This document shows, in pieces, positions 5,983 through 37,581 of a stretch of 38,865 bases of DNA. Below the pieces are notes generated by a model that was given only the letters and a program-made list of their open reading frames with translations, was not told the origin of the DNA and searched no databases. Position numbers and translations under genes: made by a program. Position 1 is the stretch's first letter; each line of letters opens with the position of its first letter. The DNA is from Flavobacteriales bacterium (GTDB lineage Bacteria > Bacteroidota > Bacteroidia > Flavobacteriales_D > Crocinitomicaceae): positions 1-38,865 of the forward strand of contig JADFAL010000065.1 in the NCBI GenBank assembly GCA_015665275.1, in the 5' to 3' direction.

Positions 5983-6013
5983 CTACCTACTCTAAAGATT
6001 TGATTTAAGTTAT

Positions 6014-6064
6014 GCCGGCCATCCGAACACTGAGGCTCTCGAAGTGCGGATGGCCGGCTTTTTT
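6014..6064 (+). terminator. strong terminator carrying a REP-like inner palindrome
   Basis: A perfect 12-bp stem GCCGGCCATCCG (6014-6025) pairs with 6047-6058 and is followed by six Ts (6059-6064). The loop itself holds the CACT...AGTG palindrome at 6028-6046, nearly identical to the inner part of the terminator at 9335-9389. It ends the BNR gene transcript. Confidence 0.85.
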
Positions 6065-7377: not shown

Positions 7378-7400
7378 TTCCTCTTTGTTTCACTTATTGA

Positions 7401-7440
7401 AAGTGGGCTCCTGAAGAATTTCAGAGTCCACTTTTTTTTG
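7401..7440 (+). terminator. terminator of the SPFH gene
   Basis: The stem AAGTGGGCTC (7401-7410) pairs with GAGTCCACTT (7424-7433, one G-U), and CTGA/TCAG can add further pairs inside. A run of eight Ts follows. It lies between convergent genes and ends the plus-strand transcript. Confidence 0.8.
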
Positions 7441-7456
7441 TTTGGAGTTAACGAAT

Positions 7457-8071: not shown

Positions 8072-8144
8072 TTTCTTGATTTATAAAAAGAAACAAATCC
8101 CATACAGTTAATGTTACAGCAAAAAATTGTGCTCAAGAAATTGG

Positions 8145-9071: not shown

Positions 9072-9176
9072 GCCTTAAAAATACGGATGGGATGGGTGGA
9101 ATGCAATATTAATTGGGGATAACTATGGGTGGCTGAAGGGAACTGGTTTATGATCAGATTATTACAACTGAGTTAT

Positions 9177-9327
9177 TCCTCCCCCCGTCGTCCCTCTCCA
9201 AAGGGGGAATGGGTCTGTCCACCTTTCAAAAAGTAGCTTTAAGGAAGGTAACATTTCAACTCTCTAGAATTAATCGAGTTTGATTTGTCTGAACTACTCC
9301 CACTGTAGAGAGGGACTAAGGGGAGGA
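9177..9327. repeat. MITE-like element of about 151 bp with imperfect terminal inverted repeats
   Basis: The left end (9177-9200) reads TCCTCCCC then GTCCCTCTC, and the right end (9306-9327) is its inverted complement apart from a few central bases. The interior has no coding sequence. No transposase is nearby. Similar G-run/C-run palindromes occur at 24763-24796 and 33291-33439. Confidence 0.5.
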
Positions 9328-9334
9328 TGTTGCA

Positions 9335-9389
9335 TAAAAAAGCCGGTCACTTTTGCACTTCGAGAACCTCAGTGCGCAATTAACCGGCT
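9335..9389 (-). terminator. terminator of the M1 peptidase gene with REP-like inner palindrome
   Basis: On the minus strand AGCCGGT (9389-9383) pairs with ACCGGCT (9347-9341), followed by a T-run (forward A-run 9335-9341). The loop contains the GCACT...AGTGC palindrome at 9355-9375, matching 18-19 of 20 bases with the loop of the terminator at 6014-6064. Confidence 0.75.
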
Positions 9390-9409
9390 AAATTGAATCT
9401 ATACTTGTA

Positions 9410-19529: not shown

Positions 19530-20844
19530 TTATTTCCAATTCAAAATCGCGATTCACCGCTTCCCAATTTTTCATGACACGATTGTTGTCCGCAAATTGT
19601 TTCGGATTGAAGATTACGTATCCACCTTTCTCAAACTCAATCTCCTTTTCCCATAGATCAATTCGCTCATTGGGAACATCATAAGACCCGAGAGAAGCTG
19701 TCACGTAAAAAGCATAAATTGGTTGGTCATCTTCCAATTGCAGCGCCCTTTCGGCAACATTTTTTTCGAAGCGATGCATGGCAAACATCTTTGAGAAAGA
19801 ATAATAGAAAAAGGCTGCGTTCAACACTAATGCTCCCGCAACAAAAACCCAATGCAACCTCTGCTGTTTTAACCAGCTCATTAACGCCGGAAAAGCCGGA
19901 AAAATAAGGATCAACACCATCAAATGAGAAATCACCATGAATCGTTGGTTCTGGAACCCAATACCTCCCAGAAAGACCAGGTAAACCAGCAATCCCATCC
20001 ACAAAAAGAACAGCTTAAAATTCCAGCGACGACACCAGAGAAGCAAGAAAACACCGCAACTTAAATATCCAACATGCGCAAAATTGCTCCAGATGTAAAC
20101 ACCGTTTGGAACCCAATACGATTCCTTATGCGACTGAAAAATGAATTCTCTGTTGAACAAGTGCTGCCAATTCCATTCCTCCGCAATGGATGTAGTCAAT
20201 CCAATGGCTTTATTGTTCCAGAAAAGGATCAAACATCCCACACCAATCACAGCCAATCCAGAGGCTATTCGAAGGGCGACATTCCATTTTTGAGTAACCA
20301 TCCAGGCTGCGTGAATCAAAGGGATTGCTATTAACGGAACAACAGCATAGCGCGTATAAGCACCGGCAGTGGCAAAAAGAACAATCCAAATGAAGTACTT
20401 GAAATCCGATTTCCGACGTAAACGCAAGTAATTGTAGACGAAGCCCATCACAAAAAAGGCTGCCAATGCATCGGACATAACCAACAGCCCTGATCGAACA
20501 AAATATACTTGAGTTGCAGCGGCAAGCAACAAGTACCAACCTCCTGAAGTTTTATAAAGCAATAAAAGACAACGTTGTGCAAAGTAGATCGCTCCCAGCA
20601 TGGAAAATAGGGAGATCAATTGGAGAACAAATCCAATGGGAATTCCTGTAAATCCAATCACGGTCCCCAACATCGGAAACAACTTAGGCCAGAAGAAATT
20701 ACCCGGATCAGTACCCGTTTCCATGAATTCTTTCAGGGCTTTCGAATATCGTAAATACTCGTGTGCGTCCTGACCGTACAAACCATTAAAATCAAAGCCC
20801 AACCACATGACAAGGAACAACAACGTAACTGTCGCATATGGCAT
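19486..20844 (-). CDS. polytopic GT-C (ArnT/PMT-like) glycosyltransferase
   Basis: A protein of about 452 residues with roughly ten membrane segments and a soluble C-terminal tail. The first periplasmic loop contains YGQDAHEYLRYSKAL, with the acidic residue near the first helix expected of GT-C enzymes that take sugars from polyprenyl-phosphate donors. A protein or lipid acceptor in the periplasm is likely; no closer assignment is possible. I use ATG 20844 (MPYATVTLL); a TTG at 20868 would add eight residues. It lies upstream of, and overlaps, the GT4 gene, and diverges from the arylsulfotransferase gene. Confidence 0.8.
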   Translation of the reverse strand: MPYATVTLLFLVMWLGFDFNGLYGQDAHEYLRYSKALKEFMETGTDPGNFFWPKLFPMLGTVIGFTGIPIGFVLQLISLFSMLGAIYFAQRCLLLLYKTSGGWYLLLAAATQVYFVRSGLLVMSDALAAFFVMGFVYNYLRLRRKSDFKYFIWIVLFATAGAYTRYAVVPLIAIPLIHAAWMVTQKWNVALRIASGLAVIGVGCLILFWNNKAIGLTTSIAEEWNWQHLFNREFIFQSHKESYWVPNGVYIWSNFAHVGYLSCGVFLLLWCRRWNFKLFFLWMGLLVYLVFLGGIGFQNQRFMVISHLMVLILIFPAFPALMSWLKQQRLHWVFVAGALVLNAAFFYYSFSKMFAMHRFEKNVAERALQLEDDQPIYAFYVTASLGSYDVPNERIDLWEKEIEFEKGGYVIFNPKQFADNNRVMKNWEAVNRDFELEIIDELPENWNIYRIQ

Positions 20845-20942
20845 CCATATCAATCTTGGGTTGTTCAAATCAAAGGAGTTTGTTCCGAAGCGAATGTACA
20901 GAATTCTCCGCCATCCCAGACTTTCGTATATTTGATTCCGTT

Positions 20943-22448
20943 ATGAAACGTAGCTTAATTCTTCTACTTCTTACCTCTTGCACCTTTGCTTTTGGTCAGA
21001 ATTACAATCGACCTATTCCAGCGGAAACTTTTCCGTACGAATTTCAAACTGCAGGAAACTCAGCTCCAGGGTATTTCATTACCACGCAATTCAAAGTCAA
21101 CCTACTACCCTCGGATCCTAACTACTTCCCACCATACCCTGTAATTTATGACGAGAATGGTTACATCGCCTGGTATTCAAAGCCTGATGTTCGAAACGCA
21201 ACAGATTTCAAGTATTTTACTGAAGTTGACATGTTTTCATATTCAACGGTTGAACAAGGGTTAATTAAAAAGTTCGTAATCCTTGATGGAAACCTAAATC
21301 GCATAGACACACTGAACGTATTCAATCACACGGAAGACATTCACGATTTTCAAAGAGCTGCAAACGGAAATTGGTTGCTTAGCACTCGCTTTGCAGACAC
21401 AATGGACCTTTCAGCTTACACGTTTGATGGAACGCAAGGAAGTACTCAAACCATCGTTCGCGGGTACGGAGTTCAGGAAATCGATCCTAATGGAAACCTG
21501 GTATTTGAATGGAATAGCAGCGACCACATGCACCCTACGGAAACCTATGATTTTTATGGGTACAATGTAAATGATTTCGACTATTGCCACGGCAATGCCA
21601 TTGAGGAGGACGACGATGGACATTTGCTTTTCTCCATGCGACACACTAATAGCATCATTAAAGTTCATAGGACCACTGGTGATATAATTTGGCGACTTGG
21701 AGGTCAACTATCTGATTTTAGTTTCATCAACAATGAGACTTTTAGTGGTCAACATGACATCCGCAGATTGCCAAATGGCCGGTATAGCTTATTTAACAAT
21801 GACAATATGGGTGTGGCTCCATTACATTCCAAAGGCGAAGAATACATCCTTGATACTGTGAACTGGACTGCCGAAAAAGTTTATGAATTCCATACCATGG
21901 ATAATCATTATCACGGATCAAGAGGTAGCTACCGACATTTATCAAACGATTACAAAATGTTAGGCTGGGGGAAATCAAACCGACCAGCCCCAACGGCGAC
22001 CCTGGTTGATGCACAGGATAATATCTTATCTGAATTTTATTTCGAAGATTCTGTAATGGTTTATAGAATGCTATTCGATTTAGACCTTGCACTTCCCCGC
22101 CCTGAAATTACCTGCGTGAATACTGGCAACGGCTACGAATTAACGGTGAACTCAGCAACATCATATCAATGGTCGACAGGAGAAACTACGCAGTCAATTC
22201 CCGTGACAACAGCAGGAACATATCAGGTGTGGGTTCCCTACGGAGAAGGATTCATTGGTTCTCTGCCATTTACGGTTGTTGATCCCAACATGCCATGTAC
22301 CGCAAGCATTTCTGAGCTTCAATTGGACAGCGAAAAGTTCCGTTTGTTCAATTTAATTGGGCAGGAGGTTGAACATCTTGAAAATGGTCATTTGTATTTA
22401 AAAATCTACGATTCCGGCACAATCGAAAAAGTAATCTTTCAGGAGTAA
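20943..22448 (+). CDS. arylsulfotransferase (ASST) family protein with partial T9SS tail
   Basis: A 501-residue exported protein. The start is ATG 20943, which gives a signal peptide ending TFAFGQ; an upstream ATG at 20838 would put 35 residues before it. The middle is a beta-propeller with ASST signatures: IHDFQRAANGNWLLSTR, GNAIEEDDDGHLLFSMRHTNSIIKVHRTTG (shown in parts: HGNAIEEDDDG and SMRHTNSI), IIWRLGG and GQHDIRRLPNG. Bacterial ASSTs transfer sulfate between phenolic compounds through a sulfo-histidine intermediate, independent of PAPS. The C-terminus (RLFNLIGQEV...GTIEKVIF) matches the second half of a T9SS type A domain, but the usual YPNP box is missing. It is followed after 1 bp by radical SAM gene 3. 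Confidence 0.85.
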   Translation: MKRSLILLLLTSCTFAFGQNYNRPIPAETFPYEFQTAGNSAPGYFITTQFKVNLLPSDPNYFPPYPVIYDENGYIAWYSKPDVRNATDFKYFTEVDMFSYSTVEQGLIKKFVILDGNLNRIDTLNVFNHTEDIHDFQRAANGNWLLSTRFADTMDLSAYTFDGTQGSTQTIVRGYGVQEIDPNGNLVFEWNSSDHMHPTETYDFYGYNVNDFDYCHGNAIEEDDDGHLLFSMRHTNSIIKVHRTTGDIIWRLGGQLSDFSFINNETFSGQHDIRRLPNGRYSLFNNDNMGVAPLHSKGEEYILDTVNWTAEKVYEFHTMDNHYHGSRGSYRHLSNDYKMLGWGKSNRPAPTATLVDAQDNILSEFYFEDSVMVYRMLFDLDLALPRPEITCVNTGNGYELTVNSATSYQWSTGETTQSIPVTTAGTYQVWVPYGEGFIGSLPFTVVDPNMPCTASISELQLDSEKFRLFNLIGQEVEHLENGHLYLKIYDSGTIEKVIFQE

Positions 22449-22449
22449 T

Positions 22450-23970
22450 ATGGCGAAACACGTTATCCTATTCAATCCGAGAAGCGCGGACGCCAAACAC
22501 CGAATTCCGAATTCAATTCTGCAAGTTGGTTCATCCATCGATGGCAAATTCCCCTACCATTTTGTAGATGGAAATCTGGAATCTGATCCCCTTCAAAAAA
22601 TGCTGGATCTAATTGAATCCAATGACGTAGGCTACGTTGGAATGACAGTAATGCCGGGACCTCAGCTCTCGCAGGCAATTCCATTTACGAGGGAGATTCA
22701 TCAAAAGTATCCCGAAATCAAGATTATATGGGGAGGCTATTTCGCTGCAAATCAACATAAGGTGGTTTTGGAATCAGGCTGGGTGGATTATGTCATCAAC
22801 GGACCGGGAGATTCTGCTTTTCCTTCGCTTCTTGACGCATTGGAATCAGGAAATAAAGACGCCATTCCTAACATCTGCAATTTGATTTTTAAAGGTGAAA
22901 ACGGAAAGATCGTTTCTACAAAAAAAGAACCGCTTCCCGACATGGACAAATTGCCCGAGTTCGCCTATGGAAAACTGAATGAGACCTATCGTTTGGAGAA
23001 TTATCTGGCAAAGACTTTTATGGGGCAGAAAACGCTCTCGTACCATTCCAGTTTTGGTTGTCCATTTACCTGTTCATTCTGCGCTGTTGTTCCAATTTAC
23101 AATGCCCGCTGGAAAGGACTAGGTGCCGAACGCATGGCAAGTGATGTACTGGGATTTAAGTCCAAATACGGGATCGATGCGGTAGAATTTCACGACAACA
23201 ACTTCTTTACTTCGCGCAAACGCGTGGTTGAATTTGCCGAGAAAATAAAGGATGAAAAGATTTCCTGGTGGGGTGAAGGAAGAATTGATACCATCAACAA
23301 ATACTCGGATGAAGACCTTCAATTGATGCAAGAAGCAGGATTGAAAATGATTTTTCTTGGAGCCGAAACCGGAAACGATGAAGTCCTCAAGCAAATGGAT
23401 AAGGGTGGAACCCAAACTGGTGCTCAGATCAAAGAATTTGCAGGACGATTGAAGAAGTTTGGGATTGTTCCGGAGTACAGTTTTGTCCTTGGAATGCCGG
23501 GAGATAGTTCCGAAAAAGTAATGCGACAGATCAACGAGGATATCAGATTTATCCAGGAAATCAAACGCATCAACCCAAATACGGAAATCATCATTTACGT
23601 GTACTCACCTGTTCCTACGGAAGGCAGCGAATTGTACGAAATGATTCAGAAGCAAGGGTTCTCATTTCCACAAACCTTAGAAGATTGGCTTTCGCCTGAT
23701 TGGGAACGATTTGATTTGCGTAAAAATCCATTGACTCCCTGGTTGAATGCAAAGCACATCAAACGCATTAAAAACTTTGAGACGGTTCTCAATGGCATGT
23801 ATCCAACAAGCAGTGATTTCCGAATTACCAAAGGGAAGCGAAGATTGCTTCGATTGGTTTCCTCATGGCGCTACAAAACGGGGTTTTTCGCCTATCCTTA
23901 TGAGATCAAACTGCTCTTTAAAATTTGGAAATACCGTCAACCCGAAGAACAAGGATTCTATAGCGAATGA
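22450..23970 (+). CDS. B12-binding-domain radical SAM protein 3
   Basis: A 506-residue member of the cobalamin-binding-type radical SAM class, the longest and most divergent of the three here. The Rossmann domain spans about 5-145 (KIIWGGYFAANQHKVVL, then YVINGPGDSAF). Radical SAM cysteines are C204, C208 and C211 (FGCPFTCSFC), followed by VEFHDNNFFTSRKRVVEF and FLGAETGNDEVLKQMDKGG. No DxHxxG His ligand is seen. ATG 22450 is preceded by AGGAG (22441-22445), an unusually good Shine-Dalgarno for this genome, inside the end of the sulfotransferase gene. The stop overlaps the next ATG by 4 bp. Substrate unknown. Confidence 0.9.
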   Translation: MAKHVILFNPRSADAKHRIPNSILQVGSSIDGKFPYHFVDGNLESDPLQKMLDLIESNDVGYVGMTVMPGPQLSQAIPFTREIHQKYPEIKIIWGGYFAANQHKVVLESGWVDYVINGPGDSAFPSLLDALESGNKDAIPNICNLIFKGENGKIVSTKKEPLPDMDKLPEFAYGKLNETYRLENYLAKTFMGQKTLSYHSSFGCPFTCSFCAVVPIYNARWKGLGAERMASDVLGFKSKYGIDAVEFHDNNFFTSRKRVVEFAEKIKDEKISWWGEGRIDTINKYSDEDLQLMQEAGLKMIFLGAETGNDEVLKQMDKGGTQTGAQIKEFAGRLKKFGIVPEYSFVLGMPGDSSEKVMRQINEDIRFIQEIKRINPNTEIIIYVYSPVPTEGSELYEMIQKQGFSFPQTLEDWLSPDWERFDLRKNPLTPWLNAKHIKRIKNFETVLNGMYPTSSDFRITKGKRRLLRLVSSWRYKTGFFAYPYEIKLLFKIWKYRQPEEQGFYSE

Positions 23971-24632
23971 TTCGTAAAAAGCTCAAAAATATTTGGTTCC
24001 GTTTGTTCTCGAACCGCATCGTTCGCAAAATGGAAAGCGATCGTTCGTACAGCTATAAGAATCTTCAAATCGAAATGGAACCTGGCGTGTTTCATCCGAG
24101 ATATTTCGACAGCAGCAAAATGTTACTGGACTGGATTGAGACCCATGATCTTGCAGGAAAAACCATCATTGAAGTAGGTTGCGGAAGTGGAATTGCATCG
24201 CTTAGAGCCGCTCAGAAAGGCGCCAATGTTTGGGCGATCGACATCAATCCAAAGGCAATTGAATTGCTGAAAAAAAATGCTGAATCTAATGGAGTCCAAT
24301 TGAAGGCTTTGGAATCAGATTTGTTTGCCCAAGTAGACGACACAACTTTCGATTTCGTTTTGATCAATCCTCCATTTTATCCGAAAAACCCAACAACAGA
24401 TGCCGAAAAAGCGTGGTTTTGCGGAGCCGGATTCGAGTACTTCCATGCGCTATTTGATCAACTAAAAAAACGGAATATTTCATCTGGAATTTTCATGACC
24501 CTTTCCGACGATTGCGATTTGGAACGCATTCGATCCATCGCCAAAGAGCAGGGCTACGAATTCAAATTAATTAAGACTAAGAAGAGTTTCTTTGAGAAGA
24601 ATTTTCTATTTGAAATCAGTGAAAAGTTGTAG
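23967..24632 (+). CDS. HemK/PrmA-like class I methyltransferase 3
   Basis: A 221-residue methyltransferase. Motif I is IIEVGCGSG (67-75), motif II WAIDINPKAIELLKKNA, and motif IV is FVLINPPFYP with NPPF at 134-137. NPPF/NPPY is the signature of enzymes that methylate planar nitrogen (HemK/PrmC, RlmG types), but it also appears in small-molecule enzymes. Location directly behind radical SAM gene 3 (ATGA overlap) argues for a pathway role rather than release-factor methylation. It differs in type from the two other methyltransferases of the locus. Confidence 0.85.
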   Translation: MIRKKLKNIWFRLFSNRIVRKMESDRSYSYKNLQIEMEPGVFHPRYFDSSKMLLDWIETHDLAGKTIIEVGCGSGIASLRAAQKGANVWAIDINPKAIELLKKNAESNGVQLKALESDLFAQVDDTTFDFVLINPPFYPKNPTTDAEKAWFCGAGFEYFHALFDQLKKRNISSGIFMTLSDDCDLERIRSIAKEQGYEFKLIKTKKSFFEKNFLFEISEKL

Positions 24633-24832: not shown

Positions 24833-24988
24833 CTAAAAAGGATACACCAACGGTGCCAAAACAGAAGACTCTCCAAGGATGATCAAAATGGCCAAAATCA
24901 GAAACGCGAGCAACAGTGGAAACAGCCAAAACTTACGCTTCTTCCAAAAGAATTTCCCTAAAGACCGTGCTACTTCCCAACGACTCAT
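24833..24988 (-). CDS. DUF5989-type small membrane protein (SxtK-like)
   Basis: A 51-residue peptide: MSRWEVARSLGKFFWKKRK, a single hydrophobic helix rich in Leu/Ile (about 20-39), then GESSVLAPLVYPF. The basic segment before the helix suggests the N-terminus stays in the cytoplasm. The sequence pattern fits DUF5989, a family of tiny membrane proteins found next to carbamoyltransferase and SxtJ-type genes; the position matches sxtK of saxitoxin clusters. Start ATG 24988 comes directly after the TAA of the SxtJ gene (TAAATG), so translation is coupled. The function is unknown; a membrane scaffold or subunit for the carbamoyltransferase is a guess. Confidence 0.8.
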   Translation of the reverse strand: MSRWEVARSLGKFFWKKRKFWLFPLLLAFLILAILIILGESSVLAPLVYPF

Positions 24989-25369
24989 TTAACCCATATT
25001 TTCGTACTCTTTCGCATTCGATTTCTCCTTCCAACCCGGACTGAAATCTACTTTTACGAAGAGTTTTCCGGCCCAAATAAACAGAAAATAGAGGACGGAA
25101 AGCAAAATTGAACTCACTATTTCGCCGATAAATTTTCCAATGAAGAACCAGATGAATAATACCGGATACAATAACTGCGGTAACAAGAGCCATCCAACGG
25201 CCATCACGGACAATGGAATAATCCGGCTGAAAAATGGCGTTGTGAAACCATACCAACGATAAAAGAAGATCGATACGAGTATAAACACCAAACCGACAAA
25301 CTGCAATTGCTTGTTCCGCTTCGAGGCCAATGCCACACTCTCTTGATATATGCTGCTAATCCAACTCAA
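24989..25369 (-). CDS. SxtJ-type membrane protein
   Basis: A 126-residue protein with three to four hydrophobic stretches (QLQFVGLVFILVSIFFYRWYG, IIPLSVMAVGWLLLPQLLYPVLFIWFFIG, IVSSILLSVLYFLFIWAG) and a soluble C-terminal tail DFSPGWKEKSNAKEYE. This matches the SxtJ membrane family, always found beside NodU/CmcH-type carbamoyltransferases. The start is TTG 25369, 14 bp inside the carbamoyltransferase gene; no ATG fits. It probably holds the carbamoyltransferase at the membrane, but this is inference, as no biochemical role is known. Confidence 0.85.
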   Translation of the reverse strand: MSWISSIYQESVALASKRNKQLQFVGLVFILVSIFFYRWYGFTTPFFSRIIPLSVMAVGWLLLPQLLYPVLFIWFFIGKFIGEIVSSILLSVLYFLFIWAGKLFVKVDFSPGWKEKSNAKEYENMG

Positions 25370-27095
25370 GGCGTACGTCTTTGATTTTTACGTTCTCATT
25401 TTCTTCTTTGTGTACCACAAAGTTACCCATCACTAAAACATCCAATCCGCTTCCGAAGAAAGTTCGCAGGGCATCCTCGGGACTATGCACCATTGGTTCT
25501 CCTCGTCGATTGAAACTGGTATTGATCAACACCGGAACACCCGATTTCTCATGAAATTTTGAAATCAAATCGCGCAGTCGTTTGTTTTGATCGGCATTCA
25601 CCGTTTGAACTCGAGCGCTCCCATCTTTGTGAACGCACGCTTCAATTCCTTCCGGTTTTGTCGCTGTGAAGGTGAACAACATCTCGTTCGCGTTCCGTAC
25701 ATTTTCGAAATAAGTGCTTGCATGCTCTTCTAGCACAACAGGTGCGAACGGACGAAACTGCTCCCGAAACTTGATCATCTCATTGATTCGATCACGCATT
25801 TCAGCGTCACTCGGATTCGCCAGAATACTTCGATTTCCTAAAGCCCTCGGTCCCATTTCATCGCGTCCCTGAAACCAGGAAACCACTTTCCCGGATTGCA
25901 ATAATGCTGCTGTCTCATTCAACAATGTAGCATCGTCCAGCTCGGTGAAAACAACTTTATGAACCTCCAGAGATTGTTGAATTTCGGTAGCATCAAATGT
26001 CTTTCCCAAGTACGACGGAACGGGTTGAACCGTCCGTTCAGAATCTTGATTTGCGCAAAGCAACGCCGTTCCCACTGCTCCACCGGCATCTCCACTGGCG
26101 CTATAGATGAATATGTCTTCGAAAATGCCGCTTTCAATCAACCGCTGATTTGCTTTGCAATTCAAGGCAACTCCTCCTCCGTAGCACAAGTACTTCTTAC
26201 CTGTTTGCTTTTGGACATGCTCCGCCGATTTCAGGACAATTTCCTCCAAAACCACTTGAATGGATGCCGCTACATCTTTGTAGAAGGTACTGATATGTTT
26301 TTCCGGCTTGAGTGCCGGTTTCCCCATCACCGATTCGAACTTCGAATTGATCATACGCATTCCGCGATGGAACTTGAAATATTTTAAATTCAACTCAATG
26401 GAGCCGTCGTCGCTAATCTTTACGAAATTGTCTTTGATCAAATCAACGAATTGCGGTGTACCGTAAGGTGCCAATCCCATCAATTTGTACTCTCCGCTGT
26501 TCACGCGAAAACCACAATATTGGGTAAAAGCGGAATACAACATTCCTACCGAATGTGGATAATTCTGTTGCGCCAATTGATGAATCTCATTGTTCTCAAA
26601 TGTTCCCATCGAAGCACAAGCCCACTCACCCACTCCGTCCAAAGTCAGGTAAGCGGCATCTTCGAAGGGCGACGCATAACATGCTGCCGCTGCGTGCGAT
26701 TCATGATGCTCTGCGTAGAAGAATTCTCCCTTGAAACCCAGTTCTTTTCGAATGTTGTGAGGTACCCATAATTTTTCTCGAAGCCATGATTTCACGGTCT
26801 TTCTAAACGGAAAAAAGGTCTGAGGATACTGAGCAATTTGAGTCTCCAGTAATCGCTCAAATTTCTGGAATGGCTTTTCGTAATAGGCAATCTTAGTTAC
26901 ATCACTAATGGTAATTCCGGCTTGATCCAGACAGAATTTTGCGGCTTTTACCGGCAATCCGCTGTCCTGTTTTTTACGCGACAACCGTTCTTCCTGAATA
27001 GCAACGATTACCTCACCGTCCTTTATGAGTGCCGCAGCAGAATCGTGAAAATATGCCGAAATTCCGAGAATGTATGTCGGTGCGTCTACTGCCAT
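25356..27095 (-). CDS. O-carbamoyltransferase, NodU/CmcH/SxtI type
   Basis: A 579-residue enzyme that moves a carbamoyl group from carbamoyl phosphate to a hydroxyl through a carbamoyl-adenylate. The N-terminal Kae1-like domain opens ILGISAYFHDSAAALIKDGE and has the metal site EHHESHAAAACYAS (about 128-141). The C-terminal YrdC-like half contains QGRDEMGPRALGNRSILA and VLINTSFNRRGEPMV, both strongly conserved. Full length, no broken motif. Start ATG 27095. It lies between an SGNH hydrolase (10-bp overlap) and SxtJ (14-bp overlap), the same set of functions as sxtI-J-K-L. The acceptor here is presumably a surface sugar or lipid, not saxitoxin. Confidence 0.95.
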   Translation of the reverse strand: MAVDAPTYILGISAYFHDSAAALIKDGEVIVAIQEERLSRKKQDSGLPVKAAKFCLDQAGITISDVTKIAYYEKPFQKFERLLETQIAQYPQTFFPFRKTVKSWLREKLWVPHNIRKELGFKGEFFYAEHHESHAAAACYASPFEDAAYLTLDGVGEWACASMGTFENNEIHQLAQQNYPHSVGMLYSAFTQYCGFRVNSGEYKLMGLAPYGTPQFVDLIKDNFVKISDDGSIELNLKYFKFHRGMRMINSKFESVMGKPALKPEKHISTFYKDVAASIQVVLEEIVLKSAEHVQKQTGKKYLCYGGGVALNCKANQRLIESGIFEDIFIYSASGDAGGAVGTALLCANQDSERTVQPVPSYLGKTFDATEIQQSLEVHKVVFTELDDATLLNETAALLQSGKVVSWFQGRDEMGPRALGNRSILANPSDAEMRDRINEMIKFREQFRPFAPVVLEEHASTYFENVRNANEMLFTFTATKPEGIEACVHKDGSARVQTVNADQNKRLRDLISKFHEKSGVPVLINTSFNRRGEPMVHSPEDALRTFFGSGLDVLVMGNFVVHKEENENVKIKDVRLELD

Positions 27096-28066
27096 AGTTC
27101 TTTCGTATGCTCGTTCAAAAAGTCGAACAATGCCTTTTGCCCTGTTTCATTCAGATGCGGATCGTTGCTATAATACAATTGCTCCCCATCCGATTCCATT
27201 TCACGAAAATACCTCATTGGATTCAAAACCTCGACACCTTTTACTTTGGATATTTCGCGAATGAATCGATAATTCGTTTTCAAGGAAGATTTATGACCGG
27301 ATAATTTTATGTAATTCGATTGGTAGGACTTGGTCACCTGACTGAAATGCGGGATCACCACAATGTAAATTGGTACTTTTTTCGGAACCAACTCACGGAG
27401 GTATGCGATGGACTCTTTGGCGTCTTCCATGGCATCTTTCATGTCGCCCTTCAACTTGATGGAATGGTTGATATAATTCGACTCTGCCCGAATCATCATT
27501 TTCGTTCTGGGAGAGTACAATCCTGGAGAAAAGTCAGCCTGATCTTGCTTCAATTTCTTCTGATCAAAATCGGACTGCAAACCACTCATGCGTCTGGAAA
27601 ACAATCCGAAAATCTCGAGATAGGGTTTCACCGACCAATAGCAATTTCTGGAGAATGAAAGCTCTCCCCAATTCACCGGTGGATCTATATCTGTAAGGTC
27701 ATTTCCAACATACATCTGGTAGATGATTCCTTTGGGTGGGTAATCCGAAATTCGTCGCGAAGCCATCAATTCCATTTCGTATGGACCGCTCCCTGGCATG
27801 GAACAATTGATCACATTTATATCGGGGTGTGCCTTTCGGAAATGAGCAACATAACCATTCGGATAAGCTGTGAATGAATCTCCGAAAACCAAAACATTCG
27901 GCTGGTTCGACTTGATATTTTTATTGAGTGCTTTGAATTCTGTTTTGAAGAAATCGATCCATTGGTAACGATACGCCACCTCCAAAACAAGCAGCGTGCA
28001 AAGCAGAACAATGAGAACCTGCAGCACTCGTTTAGCTATTTTTTTTCCATTGAACCTGCTTCTCAA
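27086..28066 (-). CDS. membrane-anchored SGNH/GDSL hydrolase-like protein 1
   Basis: A 326-residue protein with one N-terminal membrane helix (about 12-29) and an extracytoplasmic SGNH domain: VLVFGDSFTAY (block I, catalytic Ser), MPGSGPYEME for block II Gly, YVGNDLTD for block III Asn, and SNDPHLNETGQ with the Asp-His pair of block V. All four blocks are present, so an active esterase or acyltransferase is expected. Its partner in sxt clusters (SxtL) is a GDSL protein. Start TTG 28066; no ATG is available in frame before the helix. First gene of the four-gene minus-strand operon down to 24833. Confidence 0.85.
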   Translation of the reverse strand: MRSRFNGKKIAKRVLQVLIVLLCTLLVLEVAYRYQWIDFFKTEFKALNKNIKSNQPNVLVFGDSFTAYPNGYVAHFRKAHPDINVINCSMPGSGPYEMELMASRRISDYPPKGIIYQMYVGNDLTDIDPPVNWGELSFSRNCYWSVKPYLEIFGLFSRRMSGLQSDFDQKKLKQDQADFSPGLYSPRTKMMIRAESNYINHSIKLKGDMKDAMEDAKESIAYLRELVPKKVPIYIVVIPHFSQVTKSYQSNYIKLSGHKSSLKTNYRFIREISKVKGVEVLNPMRYFREMESDGEQLYYSNDPHLNETGQKALFDFLNEHTKELWQ

Positions 28067-28124
28067 AATCTTAGATCAATCTTGTTAGTTTTGTAATTCC
28101 CCAAACCAAAGGTATCAATTGTTT

Positions 28125-29123
28125 ATGATGAATAATCAGAAGCGTCTTCTTAGCCGAAAAACAGGTTTGAAGTTGATGAACATATTCATCATTCTCATCG
28201 TTACCATGTTCATTCTTGAAGGCTTTGCGCGTCTTTACCTTTTTGGTTGGAACGGTTTTAGTCCATCTGCGGTTAATTCATACAAAAACATATTTGATGC
28301 AGACATTATGGACCCAACGGATGATCGCAGAGAATTTAAATTGAAAAAAAACCTTCGTACAGAATACAAAATGCGAGACTTTCGAACCAATAAATTTGGT
28401 ATGCGGGACAAGTCCTACGGGCTTTCTAAACCGAAGGATTTTTTTAGAATTGCAGTAATTGGAGATTCTTACTCCATGGCAGCTGGAGTTAAAGAAGAAG
28501 AATCGTTTCATTCCCTCGCAGAAAAGAAATTCAATAAGCACGGAAAGAAAGTTGAAATACTGAATTTTGGTGTAAGTGGCTATGGGATGGATCAATACAT
28601 AACTGTCTTAAAAGATCACTTGTGGAAATTCGAACCAGATGCTGTCATTATTGGATTCTGCTCCTACAATGACCATTATCAGGAAGGAATACATACGAAA
28701 CGAGTTAAATTTCAGAAACCAAGGGACGTCAACCTTTTCTGGAAGTCATATCTCTACAATTGGATTGGGACCCTGGACTATGAAGATGGACTTACACGCA
28801 ATCAATACAAAAAGTCTGACATTCAATTTCTCCGAAAGAAGTTGAACGAAATTCAACGCATTTGTGTTGAGAAGAACGTTTCTTTGGGACTGATCAACCT
28901 CGGAATAACGCATAATTCCTACAACACGAATAAATTACGCGAAATCTGTGCTGATTGTGGGATTCACTTCATCGATGCTACGAAACAATTCAGTTCGAAG
29001 AAAACCCGTGATTATATTCTAATGCCTCTTGACACACATCCAAATGAAGCGGGCCACCTCTTGTTGTCATATCCTTTTTCAAATTTGGTGAAAACGCTAC
29101 GAAACGAGTACCTGTCAGACTAA
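28125..29123 (+). CDS. membrane-anchored SGNH/GDSL hydrolase-like protein 2
   Basis: About 332 residues: an N-terminal membrane helix (about 17-37), the NKFGMRDKSYGLSKPKDFFRI lead common to SGNH proteins of glycan loci (given here as NKFGMRD), then AVIGDSYSMAAGV (block I), FGVSGYGMDQ (block II) and DTHPNEAGH (block V). For block III, SYNDHYQEG is a candidate Asn. It diverges from SGNH protein 1 and is not its close copy. Start: ATG 28125 (a second ATG follows directly; a TTG at 28119 is less likely). A TAGTTTTG -7 element at 28086-28093 fits its promoter. Its last 4 bases overlap the convergent GNAT gene. It may add or remove acyl groups on the same product. Confidence 0.82.
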   Translation: MMNNQKRLLSRKTGLKLMNIFIILIVTMFILEGFARLYLFGWNGFSPSAVNSYKNIFDADIMDPTDDRREFKLKKNLRTEYKMRDFRTNKFGMRDKSYGLSKPKDFFRIAVIGDSYSMAAGVKEEESFHSLAEKKFNKHGKKVEILNFGVSGYGMDQYITVLKDHLWKFEPDAVIIGFCSYNDHYQEGIHTKRVKFQKPRDVNLFWKSYLYNWIGTLDYEDGLTRNQYKKSDIQFLRKKLNEIQRICVEKNVSLGLINLGITHNSYNTNKLREICADCGIHFIDATKQFSSKKTRDYILMPLDTHPNEAGHLLLSYPFSNLVKTLRNEYLSD

Positions 29124-30040
29124 AACATATCGCCTTGAATGAAGTGCGTTGTGAACCTGTCAAAATTGGGCAAATCCTCCTTCAAGGGAAGGTAACTGGC
29201 AGAATACCCTTCAAACGTAATCCCATGTATTTTGATTTGTTCTAGAAAAGGATCATCAGGTCGCAAATGCATTACTATTTGATGCACTCTGCTCCTCAAG
29301 GCTATGCTTTTTAGCGAATTCAACATCTCAAATAAATCCCCCTCGTCAGTCACATGAATGAAACCAATAGTTAGACGGTAATCATATTTCAGCCAAACGA
29401 AACAGCCGTGAATTTTCACAAAAAAATGATCTATGAACTTCTTTTTCTCCAAAAAGTTATCATCGTAACGTATTGAGGTTTCGGGCAATTGGTCCAGAGT
29501 CAAATCAACTTCATACTGCGCCAGGAGCTTTTCTAATCGTTTTTTACTCCATTTGGCTCCGAAGGTTCTTTCGAGGATGGATTTTGCCGTATGAGAAAAC
29601 GTTTTCCATTCCATTCCGAGGAAAGAAGGGATACGAATCCAACCCATTTTGCGCCCAAACTTATGCGTCTGAGCGCTATCAAACGTGTAGAAATAATCGT
29701 AATTCTGTTGAATGGCTTGCTCCTTCACGAACCCATAAATCCGATCAAAAACACCTTTGCCTCGATACGTTTCTTCCAGAAAATAATCGCACGTAAAAAG
29801 CATAGAGTATGATTGATCCTCAAGAAGGAATTCTTGCGGTATGGCTCCGAAAAAACCAATCACTCGTCCATCATTAATTCCAACAACAGACATTTGTTTC
29901 TGATCCGGAAGATGCAATCCGTACTTTATCTCGAAGTACGAATTCTCTACCTTTTTATTGAAAATGGATTGATACAAAACCACCAACTCCGGAAGGTGTT
30001 TGCGCTGCAAAAACTCGAATGAAATCTTAATGTCTTCCAT
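29120..30040 (-). CDS. GNAT-family N-acyltransferase
   Basis: A 306-residue protein. The N-terminal half is a GNAT domain with the acetyl-CoA loop EETYRGKGVFDRIYGFV (about 90-106) after ILTCDYFLE-like strands; GKMGWI-type segments follow (KFGRKMGWIRI). The C-terminal half is unassigned. It is the last gene of the operon with the deacetylase, O-antigen ligase and Wzz-like genes, overlapping the deacetylase by 14 bp. Proteins of this size next to NodB deacetylases often acylate amino sugars freed by deacetylation, but here that is inference. Start ATG 30040. Confidence 0.8.
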   Translation of the reverse strand: MEDIKISFEFLQRKHLPELVVLYQSIFNKKVENSYFEIKYGLHLPDQKQMSVVGINDGRVIGFFGAIPQEFLLEDQSYSMLFTCDYFLEETYRGKGVFDRIYGFVKEQAIQQNYDYFYTFDSAQTHKFGRKMGWIRIPSFLGMEWKTFSHTAKSILERTFGAKWSKKRLEKLLAQYEVDLTLDQLPETSIRYDDNFLEKKKFIDHFFVKIHGCFVWLKYDYRLTIGFIHVTDEGDLFEMLNSLKSIALRSRVHQIVMHLRPDDPFLEQIKIHGITFEGYSASYLPLKEDLPNFDRFTTHFIQGDMF

Positions 30041-30851
30041 TACGCAAACTAATGATTTGATTGTACGTGGAAATATGCGGATTGATCACCAATCGATCAT
30101 GAAAACGCGCATCGTATTCCGGATTTCCTTCAATGACAAATTGCTCGGAATATCCTTCGTTTTTTAGCACGTTAAATAGCTCGGAAGAATGATGTCCGTA
30201 AGGATACGCTACAACGTTCGAGAAAGGCGAACCAATACGATTCAATCGCTCCTCGCAGGATTTAAGATCCTCGATGACTTCTTCCGGTGCATGCTCAACG
30301 AAACTGATGTGTTTCGCCCCGTGATTCGCCAGATCAATCAAAGCATGCTCATTCAATTCCGTTAATTCTTCATCGGTCAATAACCCGTAGAAATTCTCAT
30401 AGCCCCCGTGTTCCATATCCAATGTATCTAGTGACTGACTCGTATCCTTGGCAATGTCTTTCAAGTCATCCTGATGCACCTCTTGGGTCGTACAAAATAT
30501 GGTAGCGGGAACTTGATATTTCTCAAGAATAGGAAGCGCCAAAGTTCGATTGTTTTTATATCCGTCATCAAAAGTGACAAGCACATTCAAACGATTCGGA
30601 TCGACTTTCTTATCCAGATATTCCTGAAGCGAAAGAAAGTGAACCTGACCTTGCATTCCGTTAAGCAGATTTTCCAACTGGGATTCATGCAAAAACCGAC
30701 TGTTTATGAATTTCTGATCGTTACGACAGACTCCGTGCAAACAAAGTACCCGGACCGTTCCTTCGTAACCTTTGAATGAAACTTTTCTTCCCAAAGCGTG
30801 AAATACATCTCGAGACATCCAACGAAGTTGTAAGAGAGTCTTATGCAGCAT
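30027..30851 (-). CDS. polysaccharide deacetylase, NodB-type
   Basis: About 274 residues from the chosen ATG 30851, which overlaps the end of the O-antigen ligase gene by 11 bp; an upstream ATG at 30959 would run far into that gene. Carbohydrate esterase 4 motifs: VLVTFDDGYKNN (catalytic base and metal Asp), NHGAKHIS (His pair of the metal triad) and VVAYPYGHHS (later conserved block). It removes N-acetyl groups from amino sugars of a polymer. No signal peptide is obvious, as in other Bacteroidota members working on lipid-linked intermediates. It is co-transcribed with the GNAT gene that follows. Confidence 0.9.
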   Translation of the reverse strand: MLHKTLLQLRWMSRDVFHALGRKVSFKGYEGTVRVLCLHGVCRNDQKFINSRFLHESQLENLLNGMQGQVHFLSLQEYLDKKVDPNRLNVLVTFDDGYKNNRTLALPILEKYQVPATIFCTTQEVHQDDLKDIAKDTSQSLDTLDMEHGGYENFYGLLTDEELTELNEHALIDLANHGAKHISFVEHAPEEVIEDLKSCEERLNRIGSPFSNVVAYPYGHHSSELFNVLKNEGYSEQFVIEGNPEYDARFHDRLVINPHISTYNQIISLRNGRH

Positions 30852-32295
30852 TTTTGCTTGAATTACGTGCAATTTGAGACAACCAAACAAGGGTGCCAAG
30901 TCCCGTAAAATACAAAAACGCCATTTTACTCTGATCCATGAAAGAATTGAAAATACCATGGAAAAAGTAGGTGATCAGTCCTAGTAAAACTCCAAGATTG
31001 AGCAGTCTCAACAATGGATCTTTCAACAATTCATGGTTTTTCATTCCGAAATAGATAGCTCCGAAAACAATTAATAAAAAGATGATTCCGCCAAGCAATC
31101 CTTTCTCACTGAGGTAGGTCAAATACTCTGAATGGGCATTTCCTTTTTCACCTTTATTAGAGGAAATGTGTGTTTTGAATTCTGTGGTTTGAAACTTGTT
31201 GTATTCGAACTGATACGTTCCCGGTCCATAACCTAAAATGGGGCGATCTTCAAACATTCTCACCGCACATACCCATCGATTTACCCGTTCTAGGTTGGAA
31301 GCATCCGTTTGAATATTCGTCACTGATGTTAAGTGATTGGACACTTTACCATCGTTACTCACAGCATCTGTTTCTTCAAAGTACTCATAGATTTGACCTT
31401 GCACGGCAAACACCAAAATTCCAATTCCGACAAGTCCCAATAGTAAGGTCTTGAAACGCATTTTCCAATGAAGGAACAAACCAAAAACCAACGCTATAGC
31501 CAAACTTAAAATAGCTGCTCTTGACAAAGCAATGAATTCAGATCCGATAGCAACAAGCGAAACTACAAACAAGCCGACCAATTGCCAACTTTTCCAATTC
31601 AATTTGCGCCAGTGCATACAACAGAGAATCAATAAGGGGATAATGAAGGCAAGACACGCTCCGTACACTGTATGGTCGGGAAAGAATGGTTTGGAAATAG
31701 AAAAAACCGTTCTGGGATTGAACTCCTGAATTCTGAAATTATCAAAGGTAATCAGCATTACAGGAACTAGTCCCACTACATATGCCATCCAAACTTTCAA
31801 TAAACGTTTCGGGTCTTTAAGAATGGTTATCGTCGTAAAAAAACCAACAATGAATATCGTATGTATAACCCATCGTTTGAAGGAAATATCCATATGAGAA
31901 CTGGTAAGCGTTACGATAAGTTGCCAAAATATGTCCATCGCCAGAAGAATGGAAATGGGGTGGGTAATCGTTTGCTTCAGTGTTTTGCCATAATCTCTAT
32001 GAAACAACATTAAAACTGCCAACAATGGCAATATCATGACTTCTGATGGGCTATTAACCTGTGCTTCGCCTACAATTCCAATATCCACGGATAAAGGAAT
32101 GAGGCACACCAAAAGCAGGTAAAACAAATAGGTTTTTTCTAAAACGAAATAGAATGACAAAACGATTCCAGCTAGGATGGTAGCCCCTATTGCAGTGGCG
32201 TTCACGCTCCCAAAATATTTGTACAATCCCAAGAGGACTATGAGCGCGATCAATAACGCAAAGAGTTCGTTCTTTCCTATACCGAGAATTCGCAT
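30841..32295 (-). CDS. O-antigen ligase / polymerase (Wzy_C family)
   Basis: A 484-residue polytopic protein with about eleven membrane segments. A large periplasmic loop carries the family signature: RPILGYGPGTYQFEYN, then GNAHSEYLTYLSEKGLLG with the conserved His. Enzymes of this fold either polymerise repeat units (Wzy) or ligate glycan to lipid A or protein (WaaL/PglL); sequence alone does not decide, though adjacency to a Wzz-like protein favours polymerase. Start ATG 32295, sharing one base with the previous stop. Confidence 0.88.
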   Translation of the reverse strand: MRILGIGKNELFALLIALIVLLGLYKYFGSVNATAIGATILAGIVLSFYFVLEKTYLFYLLLVCLIPLSVDIGIVGEAQVNSPSEVMILPLLAVLMLFHRDYGKTLKQTITHPISILLAMDIFWQLIVTLTSSHMDISFKRWVIHTIFIVGFFTTITILKDPKRLLKVWMAYVVGLVPVMLITFDNFRIQEFNPRTVFSISKPFFPDHTVYGACLAFIIPLLILCCMHWRKLNWKSWQLVGLFVVSLVAIGSEFIALSRAAILSLAIALVFGLFLHWKMRFKTLLLGLVGIGILVFAVQGQIYEYFEETDAVSNDGKVSNHLTSVTNIQTDASNLERVNRWVCAVRMFEDRPILGYGPGTYQFEYNKFQTTEFKTHISSNKGEKGNAHSEYLTYLSEKGLLGGIIFLLIVFGAIYFGMKNHELLKDPLLRLLNLGVLLGLITYFFHGIFNSFMDQSKMAFLYFTGLGTLVWLSQIARNSSKNAA

Positions 32296-33873: not shown

Positions 33874-34806
33874 CTATAATTCGTGTTTGATTACCTGATA
33901 CACCTCTTCTGTAACTGCATCACGAACGAAGATTACTACGTGAGAACTTGTATTGTCATACGCTTCGGGTACCTCATAAATGTAATTGAAGTAGTATTTT
34001 CCATTGTCCAGGTGTTCAGCGTCTAATTCTTGACCCCATACGGACCCGTCTATTGACTCTCGGAGGATGTCTTTATGAGAATAATTGAAAAGAGTGTCTG
34101 TTGGGGTCAATTGCGGTGAAATCGATTCATCCTCCACCAAGTAAGAAACAATGCGCAATTCATTAGTGAGCGCTGGGTCAACAACTTCTACTTCTGTATG
34201 AAGGAACAAACCGTTTGTGCTTGGATAGTAATTCGAGGCTGCTTGTAAGCGCACTTTGTTGTCATTAGTCTGCAAAATACTATTCGTAGAATTTGCCCAA
34301 TTTGGTGGGCCTTCCATTGGGGTTCCACTACCATTATCACGTCGACTAACTGCACCATATGGATTGCCAATGAAGTTACTTCCTGGCCATTGTACACCAA
34401 AATACTGACCTAAGGTTTCAGAAAGAGCATTGTAATAAATACCGTTAAAGATGTTATTCTCTAATTGAAAGGTCTCAGTTCCGTTAGGTCCGGCGTGAAT
34501 TCCCATAACCACAACGCGCCCGGGATTTGACGCCCTAATCGCGTACGCAGTGTCAGCAGCAATAGGGCAAAACTGGCATTTGTGCCCAGTATAATCCTCT
34601 ATCAAGACATTTCTCTCGTTGCTAGTATTAGCTGAGAATACTGGCCATGCATTTTGCGCATAATGAGCCGAATCACCGTTGGGGTAAAGTACATCATATG
34701 GATCTGTTCCCCCGAAAGGATCTGAAGAACCCGAAGGAGTTTCAACTTTCTCACAAGATGTACATAGAAGAGCCCCTAGCGCTCCAAATAATAATAGCTT
34801 TTTCAT
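33874..34806 (-). CDS. Omp28-family lipoprotein, paralogue 2
   Basis: A 310-residue lipoprotein: signal MKKLLLFGALGALLCTSC with the acylated Cys at 18. An Omp28-like domain follows, with RNVLIEDYTGHKCQFCP holding a CxxC in a thioredoxin-like position, then IHAGPNGTE and NPYGAVSRRDNG. The C-terminal half is beta-rich (HTEVEVVDP, YYFNYIYEVPEAYDN). The family is named after Omp28 of Porphyromonas; the CxxC suggests redox activity or metal binding, unproven. It is a tandem duplicate of the gene at 34904, separated from it by a terminator, so it is expressed from its own promoter. Start ATG 34806. Confidence 0.88.
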   Translation of the reverse strand: MKKLLLFGALGALLCTSCEKVETPSGSSDPFGGTDPYDVLYPNGDSAHYAQNAWPVFSANTSNERNVLIEDYTGHKCQFCPIAADTAYAIRASNPGRVVVMGIHAGPNGTETFQLENNIFNGIYYNALSETLGQYFGVQWPGSNFIGNPYGAVSRRDNGSGTPMEGPPNWANSTNSILQTNDNKVRLQAASNYYPSTNGLFLHTEVEVVDPALTNELRIVSYLVEDESISPQLTPTDTLFNYSHKDILRESIDGSVWGQELDAEHLDNGKYYFNYIYEVPEAYDNTSSHVVIFVRDAVTEEVYQVIKHEL

Positions 34807-34837
34807 AGTTCATGTAAATTAAGCAGGCCTCTTGACA

Positions 34838-34869
34838 TAAAAAAAGCCCCAAAGGCAATTCTTTGGAGC
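34838..34869 (-). terminator. terminator between the two Omp28-family genes
   Basis: On the minus strand GCTCCAAAG pairs with CTTTGGGGC (one G-U), loop of 6 nt, followed by seven Ts (forward A-run 34839-34845). Confidence 0.8.
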
Positions 34870-34903
34870 TTCTTGTAATCTTATAATTTCAGATAATGCC
34901 TTC

Positions 34904-35827
34904 TTAGAAATCGTGCTTAATTACCTGATATACTTCTTCTGTAACATCGTCTCGTACGAAAATCACCAAATGAGAGTTCGTATCGTCATAAGCATCCGGT
35001 ACTTCATAAATGTAGTTGAAGTAGTATTTTCCATTGTCTAGGTGTTCAGCATCCAATTCCTGTCCCCAAACAGATCCATCTAAAGATTCTCTTAGAATAT
35101 CATGGTGTACATAATCGTAAACTGTCGTGCTCCCGTCAAGTTGTGGCGCAACATGAGAATCTTCAACTAGGTAAGCGACAATATTCAATGGGTTCGTCAA
35201 TGATTGATCTACTACCTCAATTTCTGTGTGTAGAAACAAGCCTTTCGTAGTTGTGTAATAATTTGACATTGCCTGTAATCGAACCTTGTTGTCGTTCGTT
35301 GTGATGATATCAGCTACAGAATTCGCCCATGTTTGAGGTCCTTCCATAGGCGTTCCATTTCCATTATCTTTACGACTTATCGCCCCATAAGGGTTTCCCG
35401 CAAAATTACTTCCCGGCCAATTTACACCAAAATGCTGCCCTAAAGCTTCTGAGATGTAATTGTAAAATACACCGAAATATGTTGCATCTTCCATTTGCAA
35501 GTTCTCCGTTCCGTTAGGTCCAGCGTGAATTCCCATTACTATTACACGACCAGAGTTTGCAGCCTTAATGTTCTCCGCTTCCGCAGCTGCGGCTGGGCAG
35601 AATGTACATTTATGACCCGTATAATCTTCTAATAGTACGTTTCTATCATCGCTTGTGTTCGCTGGGAACGTTGGCCACGCATTCTGAGCGTAATGCGCAG
35701 AATCTCCATCCGGGTATAATTCGTAACTTCCTTGAGGAACACTTGGTCCATACGGCTGTTCCACTTTATCACAAGAAGCCAATAGAAATGCTCCAACCGC
35801 CAATACTAATAATACCTTCTTCATCAT
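34904..35827 (-). CDS. Omp28-family lipoprotein, paralogue 1
   Basis: A 307-residue lipoprotein with signal MMKKVLLVLAVGAFLLASC (ATG 35827, or the next ATG 35824). It shares most motifs with its neighbour at 33874: NVLLEDYTGHKCTFCP with CxxC, GIHAGPNGTE, NPYGAISRKDNG, GSVWGQELDAEHLDNG, and an almost identical C-terminus ending EEVYQVIKHDF. The two differ mainly in the linker after the lipid-bearing Cys. It starts 9 bp after the DUF6029 stop and ends at a terminator, so TlpA, DUF6029 and this gene form one unit. Confidence 0.9.
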   Translation of the reverse strand: MMKKVLLVLAVGAFLLASCDKVEQPYGPSVPQGSYELYPDGDSAHYAQNAWPTFPANTSDDRNVLLEDYTGHKCTFCPAAAAEAENIKAANSGRVIVMGIHAGPNGTENLQMEDATYFGVFYNYISEALGQHFGVNWPGSNFAGNPYGAISRKDNGNGTPMEGPQTWANSVADIITTNDNKVRLQAMSNYYTTTKGLFLHTEIEVVDQSLTNPLNIVAYLVEDSHVAPQLDGSTTVYDYVHHDILRESLDGSVWGQELDAEHLDNGKYYFNYIYEVPDAYDDTNSHLVIFVRDDVTEEVYQVIKHDF

Positions 35828-35836
35828 AATTCTATT

Positions 35837-37513: not shown

Positions 37514-37581
37514 CAATTTAAGCAGTTTTATAAGTTTCGCAGTAGTTATAGGTAAGTTGAACGTGTGTTCAATTCTTTGGT

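What the first reader, a model, noticed from the sequence alone, without database searches (positions are those of the whole stretch)
24833..28066. sxtI-J-K-L-like module in a Bacteroidota glycan locus
One minus-strand operon encodes an SGNH/GDSL protein, an O-carbamoyltransferase, an SxtJ-type membrane protein and a 51-residue DUF5989-type peptide, all overlapping or touching (10 bp, 14 bp, 0 bp). Saxitoxin clusters carry the same four functions next to each other (SxtI, SxtJ, SxtK, SxtL), where SxtJ and SxtK have no known role. Finding the set beside glycosyltransferases and a Wzz/O-antigen ligase operon suggests a general membrane-bound carbamoylation machine for surface sugars or lipids that toxin clusters borrowed. 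This would give the two unknown small proteins a job.
Basis: partly seen in the sequence, partly recalled or inferred. Interest (0 to 1): 0.8.

Follow-up and report, generated by a model that had tools for sequence, protein, structure and literature searches.

The report
Conserved membrane carbamoylation gene set
Beside sugar-coat genes of a Fluviicola-like bacterium lies a four-gene set, also known from a shellfish-toxin pathway, that recurs in distant bacteria as one unit built round an enzyme that adds carbamoyl groups and predicted to sit at the cell membrane, and natural gene fusions show that its parts belong together.

Summary
The four minus-strand genes are real, with the stated coordinates and overlaps. 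They belong to a conserved module. DUF5989, an SxtJ-family membrane protein and one clade of O-carbamoyltransferases (CT) go together: of 247 genomes of the class, 61 of 62 with a high-scoring CT have DUF5989; of 149 Planctomycetota, 62 of 62. Module CTs share one branch of a CT tree (SH-aLRT 99). Gene order differs between loci (C-D-J 53, C-J-D 6, J-D-C 2) while linkage stays. The window's SxtJ-like protein hits no Pfam model; an iterative profile places it in the family.

New here: six diverged Planctomycetota proteins (30-46% identical) fuse an SGNH domain to DUF5989 beside CT and SxtJ, and one Bacteroidia protein fuses SGNH to CT. So SGNH is a real, optional partner, directly adjacent in 23 of 75 loci.

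Best reading: a cytosolic CT docked at the inner membrane by SxtJ and DUF5989 and tied to an SGNH enzyme, probably outside. The acceptor is unknown; in samples, glycan genes were no commoner beside the module than beside other CTs. That SxtI, SxtJ and SxtK act together is already proposed in print; borrowing by toxin clusters was not tested.

The parts
27086..28066 (-). SGNH/GDSL protein, 326 aa, one N-terminal membrane helix (residues 14-32), SGNH domain predicted outside; Ser64 and His304 invariant in the 23 aligned sequences
   Evidence: TTG start, true start uncertain
25356..27095 (-). O-carbamoyltransferase of the module-type clade, 579 aa, no membrane segment by hydropathy
   Evidence: (PDB relatives: decarbamoylnovobiocin carbamoyltransferase 9s2t, GdmN, TobZ)
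24989..25369 (-). SxtJ-family small membrane protein, 126 aa, TTG start
   Evidence: no direct Pfam hit
24833..24988 (-). DUF5989 peptide, 51 aa, one membrane helix (20-38), basic N-terminus, conserved AP..Y.F end
28119..29123 (+). context: second, divergent SGNH/GDSL protein with an N-terminal membrane helix
29120..33287 (-). context: GNAT, polysaccharide deacetylase, O-antigen ligase (Wzy_C) and Wzz genes

Best explanation
The set is a membrane-anchored O-carbamoylation module. The CT sits in the cytosol and makes the carbamoyl transfer from carbamoyl phosphate and ATP (inferred from its family). SxtJ (about three helices) and DUF5989 (one membrane helix, basic end inside, conserved AP-x-x-Y end outside) are its dedicated membrane subunits: they dock this one CT clade at the inner membrane, where it meets a membrane-bound or lipid-linked acceptor. 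The SGNH enzyme is an optional partner, probably held on the outer side through DUF5989, acting on the carbamoylated product (transfer or trimming). Shown: co-occurrence, shared CT clade, reshuffled but kept linkage, SGNH-DUF5989 and SGNH-CT fusions, silent-change bias of the small genes. Inferred: docking, sidedness, acceptor, SGNH role.
For: Co-occurrence: 61 of 62 genomes with a CT of 260 bits or more have DUF5989, and 64 of 65 DUF5989 genomes have a CT, of 247; 62 of 62 and 68 of 68, of 149 Planctomycetota. 44 of 49 Pfam-SxtJ places over the cut-off have DUF5989 within 3 kb on the same strand. CT tree: all 80 module CTs plus 7 high-scoring CTs with no DUF5989 on the stretch held lie on one side of a branch, SH-aLRT 99, one change of label. 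Order reshuffled, linkage kept. Six SGNH-DUF5989 fusions in loci with CT and an SxtJ match and one SGNH-CT fusion. SGNH directly adjacent in 23 of 75 loci, in several positions. 23 columns are at 90% or more in module CTs and at 25% or less in other CTs, ten of them in residues 72-108, a candidate docking patch. H130, H134 and D336 are at 95% or more in both groups (their catalytic role is recalled). Topology from hydropathy and charge; SxtJ model all helical.
Against: No complex was modelled or measured. SxtJ model confidence is only moderate (pLDDT 75, pTM 0.44). No SGNH hit in 40 of 75 loci; most stretches were short, but with 6 kb or more on both sides it is still missing in 15 of 35, so it is not essential. 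An SGNH gene also overlaps a CT outside the module clade in 1 of 40 control loci (L187). The SGNH-CT fusion has no predicted membrane helix, which puts that SGNH inside the cell. In the fusions the hydropathy cut-off finds three membrane segments between SGNH and DUF5989 in 2 of 6 and only two in 4 of 6; with two, DUF5989 would point the other way, so sidedness there is not settled. The SGNH of relative L055 falls below the cut-off. DUF5989-SGNH pairs occur with no CT on the stretch held (L120, L122), so DUF5989 may serve SGNH rather than CT. Other CTs of the family (TobZ, GdmN) are studied as soluble enzymes without such partners (recalled).
Confidence: 0.5

Rival explanations
1. Trans-envelope relay: CT loads a carbamoyl group inside, SxtJ/DUF5989 pass it through the membrane, and the SGNH enzyme attaches it outside, as MBOAT plus SGNH pairs do for acetyl groups (recalled).
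Against: No known carrier for a carbamoyl group; SGNH missing in 15 of 35 loci with 6 kb or more on both sides; the CT family transfers straight to its acceptor (recalled); the SGNH-CT fusion lacks a membrane helix and the sidedness of the SGNH-DUF5989 fusions is not settled.
Confidence: 0.13
2. SGNH is a carbamoyl or acetyl esterase that trims the CT product, as proposed for SxtL, and SxtJ/DUF5989 are only CT anchors.
For: Decarbamoylation proposed for SxtL (passages); best structural matches are esterases; catalytic-type Ser and His invariant in 23.
Against: A stable DUF5989-SGNH fusion suggests a joint role rather than a later trimming step; trimming the product of one's own operon would be wasteful (inference).
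Confidence: 0.2
3. DUF5989 is first of all the membrane anchor of SGNH enzymes that modify envelope or natural-product molecules, and CT with SxtJ is one frequent customer.
For: Fusions are SGNH-DUF5989, not CT-DUF5989; DUF5989-SGNH pairs in L120 and L122 without CT on the stretch held.
Against: 64 of 65 and 68 of 68 DUF5989 genomes have a CT; no SGNH beside DUF5989 in 15 of 35 loci with 6 kb or more on both sides.
Confidence: 0.12
4. The set is just a neutral gene cluster inherited together.
For: Related genomes share it, so genome counts are not independent.
Against: Order reshuffled with linkage kept, two groups of bacteria, patchy presence (DUF5989 in 42 of 136 genera), fusions, SxtJ in 0 of 40 loci of other CTs.
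Confidence: 0.03

Closest known systems
sxtI-sxtJ-sxtK-sxtL of the saxitoxin clusters
   Same: Same four functions listed in a row: carbamoyltransferase, sxtJ (405 bp), sxtK (165 bp), GDSL protein; SxtJ and SxtK already proposed to act with SxtI (passages).
   Different: Here in Bacteroidota and Planctomycetota; in the window SGNH lies before CT, not last; that SxtK is DUF5989 was not tested on its sequence.
sxtJ,K,L-like genes of the suomilide cluster
   Same: The three genes cluster in a non-saxitoxin pathway (passages), so the set is not tied to saxitoxin.
   Different: Natural-product cluster in Nostoc; its carbamoyltransferase, if any, was not looked up.
NodU/TobZ/GdmN-type O-carbamoyltransferases
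   Same: Homology along nearly the whole length of CT.
   Different: The module clade carries its own near-fixed residues and predicted membrane partners.
WapO carbamoyltransferase of the Pseudomonas LPS core
   Same: Precedent for carbamoyl on a surface sugar; WapO itself is a putative transferase (passages).
   Different: Whether WapO has SxtJ/DUF5989 partners was not tested.
MBOAT + SGNH O-acetylation pairs (AlgI with AlgJ/AlgX, PatA/PatB; pairing recalled)
   Same: Membrane protein plus extracytoplasmic SGNH enzyme; fold and profile similarity of the SGNH part.
   Different: The group-transfer enzyme here is a CT without membrane segment; no MBOAT among 29 window proteins scanned.
CgnD and CgnI of crocagin biosynthesis
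   Different: CgnD was shown to release the core from its leader peptide (passages).

Membership tests
O-carbamoyltransferase (NodU/CmcH family) | Carbam_trans_N and Carbam_trans_C domains with conserved metal and active-site residues | tested here: met
   278.5 and 225.7 bits; PDB relatives; H130, H134, D336 conserved; their role is recalled
DUF5989 (PF19451) | Score over the Pfam cut-off of 27 bits | tested here: met
   47.5 bits
SxtJ (PF19588) | Score over the Pfam cut-off of 24.4 bits | tested here: not met
   No hit at E <= 1; 0 in the own genome at E <= 0.1
SxtJ-like family, wider than PF19588 | Linked to PF19588-positive proteins by an iterative profile, and same place in the module | tested here: met
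   69 members, gap from E 6e-7 to 0.32; 49 of 49 Pfam-positive places among them; adjacency
Saxitoxin-type sxtIJKL set | SxtK is DUF5989 and SxtL is of this SGNH kind | not tested
   No sxt sequence was used; lengths and order only from a paper (passages)
SGNH/GDSL superfamily | Catalytic Ser in the GDS block and His in the last block, SGNH fold | tested here: met
AlgX/AlgJ/PatB-type O-acetyltransferase | Transferase activity with an MBOAT partner | tested here: inconclusive

The most novel reading that the evidence does not exclude
A previously undescribed trans-envelope carbamoylation machine: a cytosolic carbamoyltransferase, two small membrane subunits (SxtJ, DUF5989) and an extracytoplasmic SGNH transferase that together decorate envelope molecules outside the inner membrane, of which the saxitoxin genes are one specialised offshoot.
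Probability: 0.17. Interest if true: 0.85.

Novelty: new variant of a known kind. Interest (0 to 1): 0.62.

Why it matters
SxtJ and SxtK are listed as unknown in the papers on the saxitoxin cluster (passages), with no role of their own. The link of SxtJ and DUF5989 to a widespread module, and above all the DUF5989-SGNH fusions, turn small unknown proteins into testable membrane subunits and give a harmless bacterial setting in which to study them. It also predicts carbamoylated molecules, perhaps of the envelope, in Bacteroidota and Planctomycetota, which could be looked for directly. No paper of the held library contains the word DUF5989.

Tried and rejected
Rejected: chance neighbourhood (order shuffled, linkage kept). 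Rejected: the long DUF5989 frames in L128 and L129 as fusions; I read the extra residues as start extensions in another frame of high-GC DNA. L130 (456-aa frame) was left unresolved. Rejected: strong glycan specificity. In 89 of 492 module neighbours Pfam gives 6 Glycos_transf_1, 4 Epimerase and 3 Lipase_GDSL_2; in 89 of 354 neighbours of other CTs 8 Glycos_transf_2 and 6 Glycos_transf_1 (only the 25 commonest families are shown; one over-long protein was dropped from each draw of 90). An amphipathic docking helix at CT 72-108 was not borne out: none of the eight highest hydrophobic moments lies there.

Choices that touch the counts. The 260-bit line was drawn after seeing a gap in the scores (247.6 to 267.8). 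Three DUF5989 rows under the cut-off were left out. A first labelling of the CT tree gave 10 changes; three second CTs within 3.5 kb of module genes had been labelled as module CTs. After relabelling them and leaving 7 rows uncounted, one change remained. In one search, 59 of 87 SxtJ rows were entered: all 49 over the cut-off and ten weaker ones picked by eye, so only the 44 of 49 is a clean count. Five of 69 low-scoring CT places do have DUF5989 within 6 kb: two are pieces of one CT split over two frames beside DUF5989 (L127), two are second CTs beside a full module (L038, L087), one lies on a short contig that holds DUF5989 and SxtJ and no other CT (L075). None of these five was among the 40 control loci, so 0 of 40 for DUF5989 is by selection, while 0 of 40 for SxtJ is not. 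The SGNH profile was trained on proteins near the module, and module and control stretches differ, so 35 of 75 against 2 of 40 overstates the contrast; only 1 of the 75 loci holds 9 kb on both sides.

The 2008 cluster paper is not held. Paper searches. All papers cited were seen as passages only.
Full report
Observation. Pfam confirms the CT and DUF5989 and gives ALGX for the SGNH protein; the 126-residue protein has no Pfam hit. Two relatives keep the whole unit in the same order: L055 (Fluviicola sp. XM-24bin1) and L056. CT is 85 and 84% identical, SxtJ-like 91 and 92%, DUF5989 100 and 98%; the small genes show mostly silent changes. The host of the window is therefore probably Fluviicola-like (inferred from the synteny).

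Family of the small proteins. A profile grown from the window's SxtJ-like protein alone gathered 69 proteins out of 8,761 ORFs of 93 loci plus the window, with a clear gap (E 6e-7 to 0.32). All 49 places that pass the Pfam SxtJ cut-off are among them. The loci had been chosen for DUF5989, CT or SxtJ, so the E-values hold for that set only; the short loci L001-L034 were left out. A profile from the window's DUF5989 gathered 76, 74 of them in the first round. In 20 DUF5989 sequences K19, W21, L22, P24, A45, P46, Y49 and F51 (window numbering) never vary.

Co-occurrence. In 247 genomes drawn from the class, DUF5989 passes its cut-off in 65, Carbam_trans_N matches in 101, and SxtJ passes in 48. 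CT scores fall into two groups: 64 of 133 places at 260 bits or more, in 62 genomes. Of these 62 genomes 61 have DUF5989; 57 of 69 DUF5989 places lie within 5 kb of a CT on the same strand; 55 of 64 high-scoring CTs, but 5 of 69 others, have DUF5989 within 6 kb on the same strand. Of the nine exceptions among high-scoring CTs, eight lie in genomes that hold DUF5989 on another contig; the ninth is in G096, which has none. In 149 Planctomycetota, 68 of 68 DUF5989 genomes have a CT and 62 of 62 high-scoring-CT genomes have DUF5989; the six DUF5989 genomes outside that group have lower-scoring CTs, three of them at 252-254 bits. Genomes are related, so the Fisher values printed are not to be taken at face value; the reshuffled order is better evidence. 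Of 93 loci and the window, 61 hold one each of module CT, DUF5989 and SxtJ on one strand: C-D-J in 53, C-J-D in 6 (window, L055, L056, L043, L054 and the Planctomycetia locus L058) and J-D-C in 2 (L042 and the Pelagibacteraceae locus L065). In L043 another gene stands between.

One clade of CT. On a quick LG+G4 tree of 137 CTs the 80 module CTs and 7 high-scoring CTs with no DUF5989 on the stretch held stand on one side of a branch with SH-aLRT 99, and 50 other CTs on the other. Support elsewhere is often weak. Twenty-three columns are at 90% or more in the module group and at 25% or less elsewhere, ten of them within residues 72-108. This could be a docking surface or a substrate pocket; the data do not say which.

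SGNH as a real partner. A profile of SGNH proteins near the module hits 42 proteins in 35 of 75 DUF5989-bearing loci, the window included; of 35 loci with 6 kb or more held on both sides, 20 have a hit. In 23 of 75 an SGNH gene touches or nearly touches a module gene on the same strand: before CT, between CT and DUF5989, after SxtJ, or beside DUF5989 alone. In the control set one CT of the other groups also has an overlapping SGNH gene (L187). Natural fusions weigh most. In 20 Planctomycetota loci, picked for long DUF5989 frames or high scores, six hold one protein made of an N-terminal membrane helix, an SGNH domain, two or three further membrane segments and DUF5989 at the end, next to a CT and a protein with an SxtJ match of E 1e-5 to 2e-9 (L131, L132, L133, L134, L135, L137; Pfam on L131 and L134). 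They are 30-46% identical to each other, so the fusion is old and not an assembly slip. In Bacteroidia, L104 holds SGNH fused to CT, a single case for which a sequencing slip is not excluded. L120 and L122 have DUF5989 beside SGNH with no CT on the stretch held, with radical SAM genes in both and an asparagine synthase and a sulfotransferase in L122. The genome of L120 has a high-scoring CT on another contig, that of L122 only a low-scoring one. DUF5989 may thus be above all the SGNH partner.

Mechanism. The CT chemistry follows from its family (and recalled work on TobZ). Because soluble CTs of that family need no partner (recalled), the two membrane proteins most likely give place and acceptor rather than chemistry: they hold CT at the membrane and near SGNH. 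The acceptor is not known. Glycan genes lie near the module in the window and turn up among sampled neighbours, but no more than beside other CTs.

Known and new. Papers say or propose that SxtI works with SxtJ and SxtK (passages of PMC2679770, PMC7073992, PMC12300590), and that sxtJ, K and L cluster in the suomilide pathway (passages of PMC10157211). No held paper contains DUF5989. What this study adds: the extent of the module in the window's class and in Planctomycetota, the single CT clade with its near-fixed residues, and the SGNH-DUF5989 fusions. That these are absent from print is claimed only for the searches.

Noticed in passing
window 28119-30959: A second SGNH/GDSL gene with a membrane helix starts 52 bp from the module, divergently. 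This gene, the GNAT and the deacetylase are not found at this place in L055; in L056 the GNAT and deacetylase have 44% relatives and four other genes stand before the module.
   Followed up: partly
window 20838-24632 (+): An arylsulfotransferase-like gene is followed by a B12-binding radical SAM gene and a methyltransferase; all three are kept in L055 and L056.
   Followed up: no
L057 (also L060, L067), about 4763-10036: Bacteroidales operon SGNH - MBOAT - CT - DUF5989 - short SxtJ, joining an O-acyltransferase to the module; the MBOAT was scanned in L057 only.
   Followed up: partly
L120 and L122: DUF5989-SGNH pairs with no CT on the stretch held, beside radical SAM genes.
   Followed up: partly
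L131-L135, L137: Two or three extra membrane segments lie between the SGNH domain and DUF5989 in the fusion proteins; their nature is unknown.
   Followed up: no
L127 (8068-9881): A CT split over two frames beside DUF5989; described only.
   Followed up: no
window 33874-37516 (-): Two neighbouring Omp28-family genes beside a DUF6029 gene.
   Followed up: no
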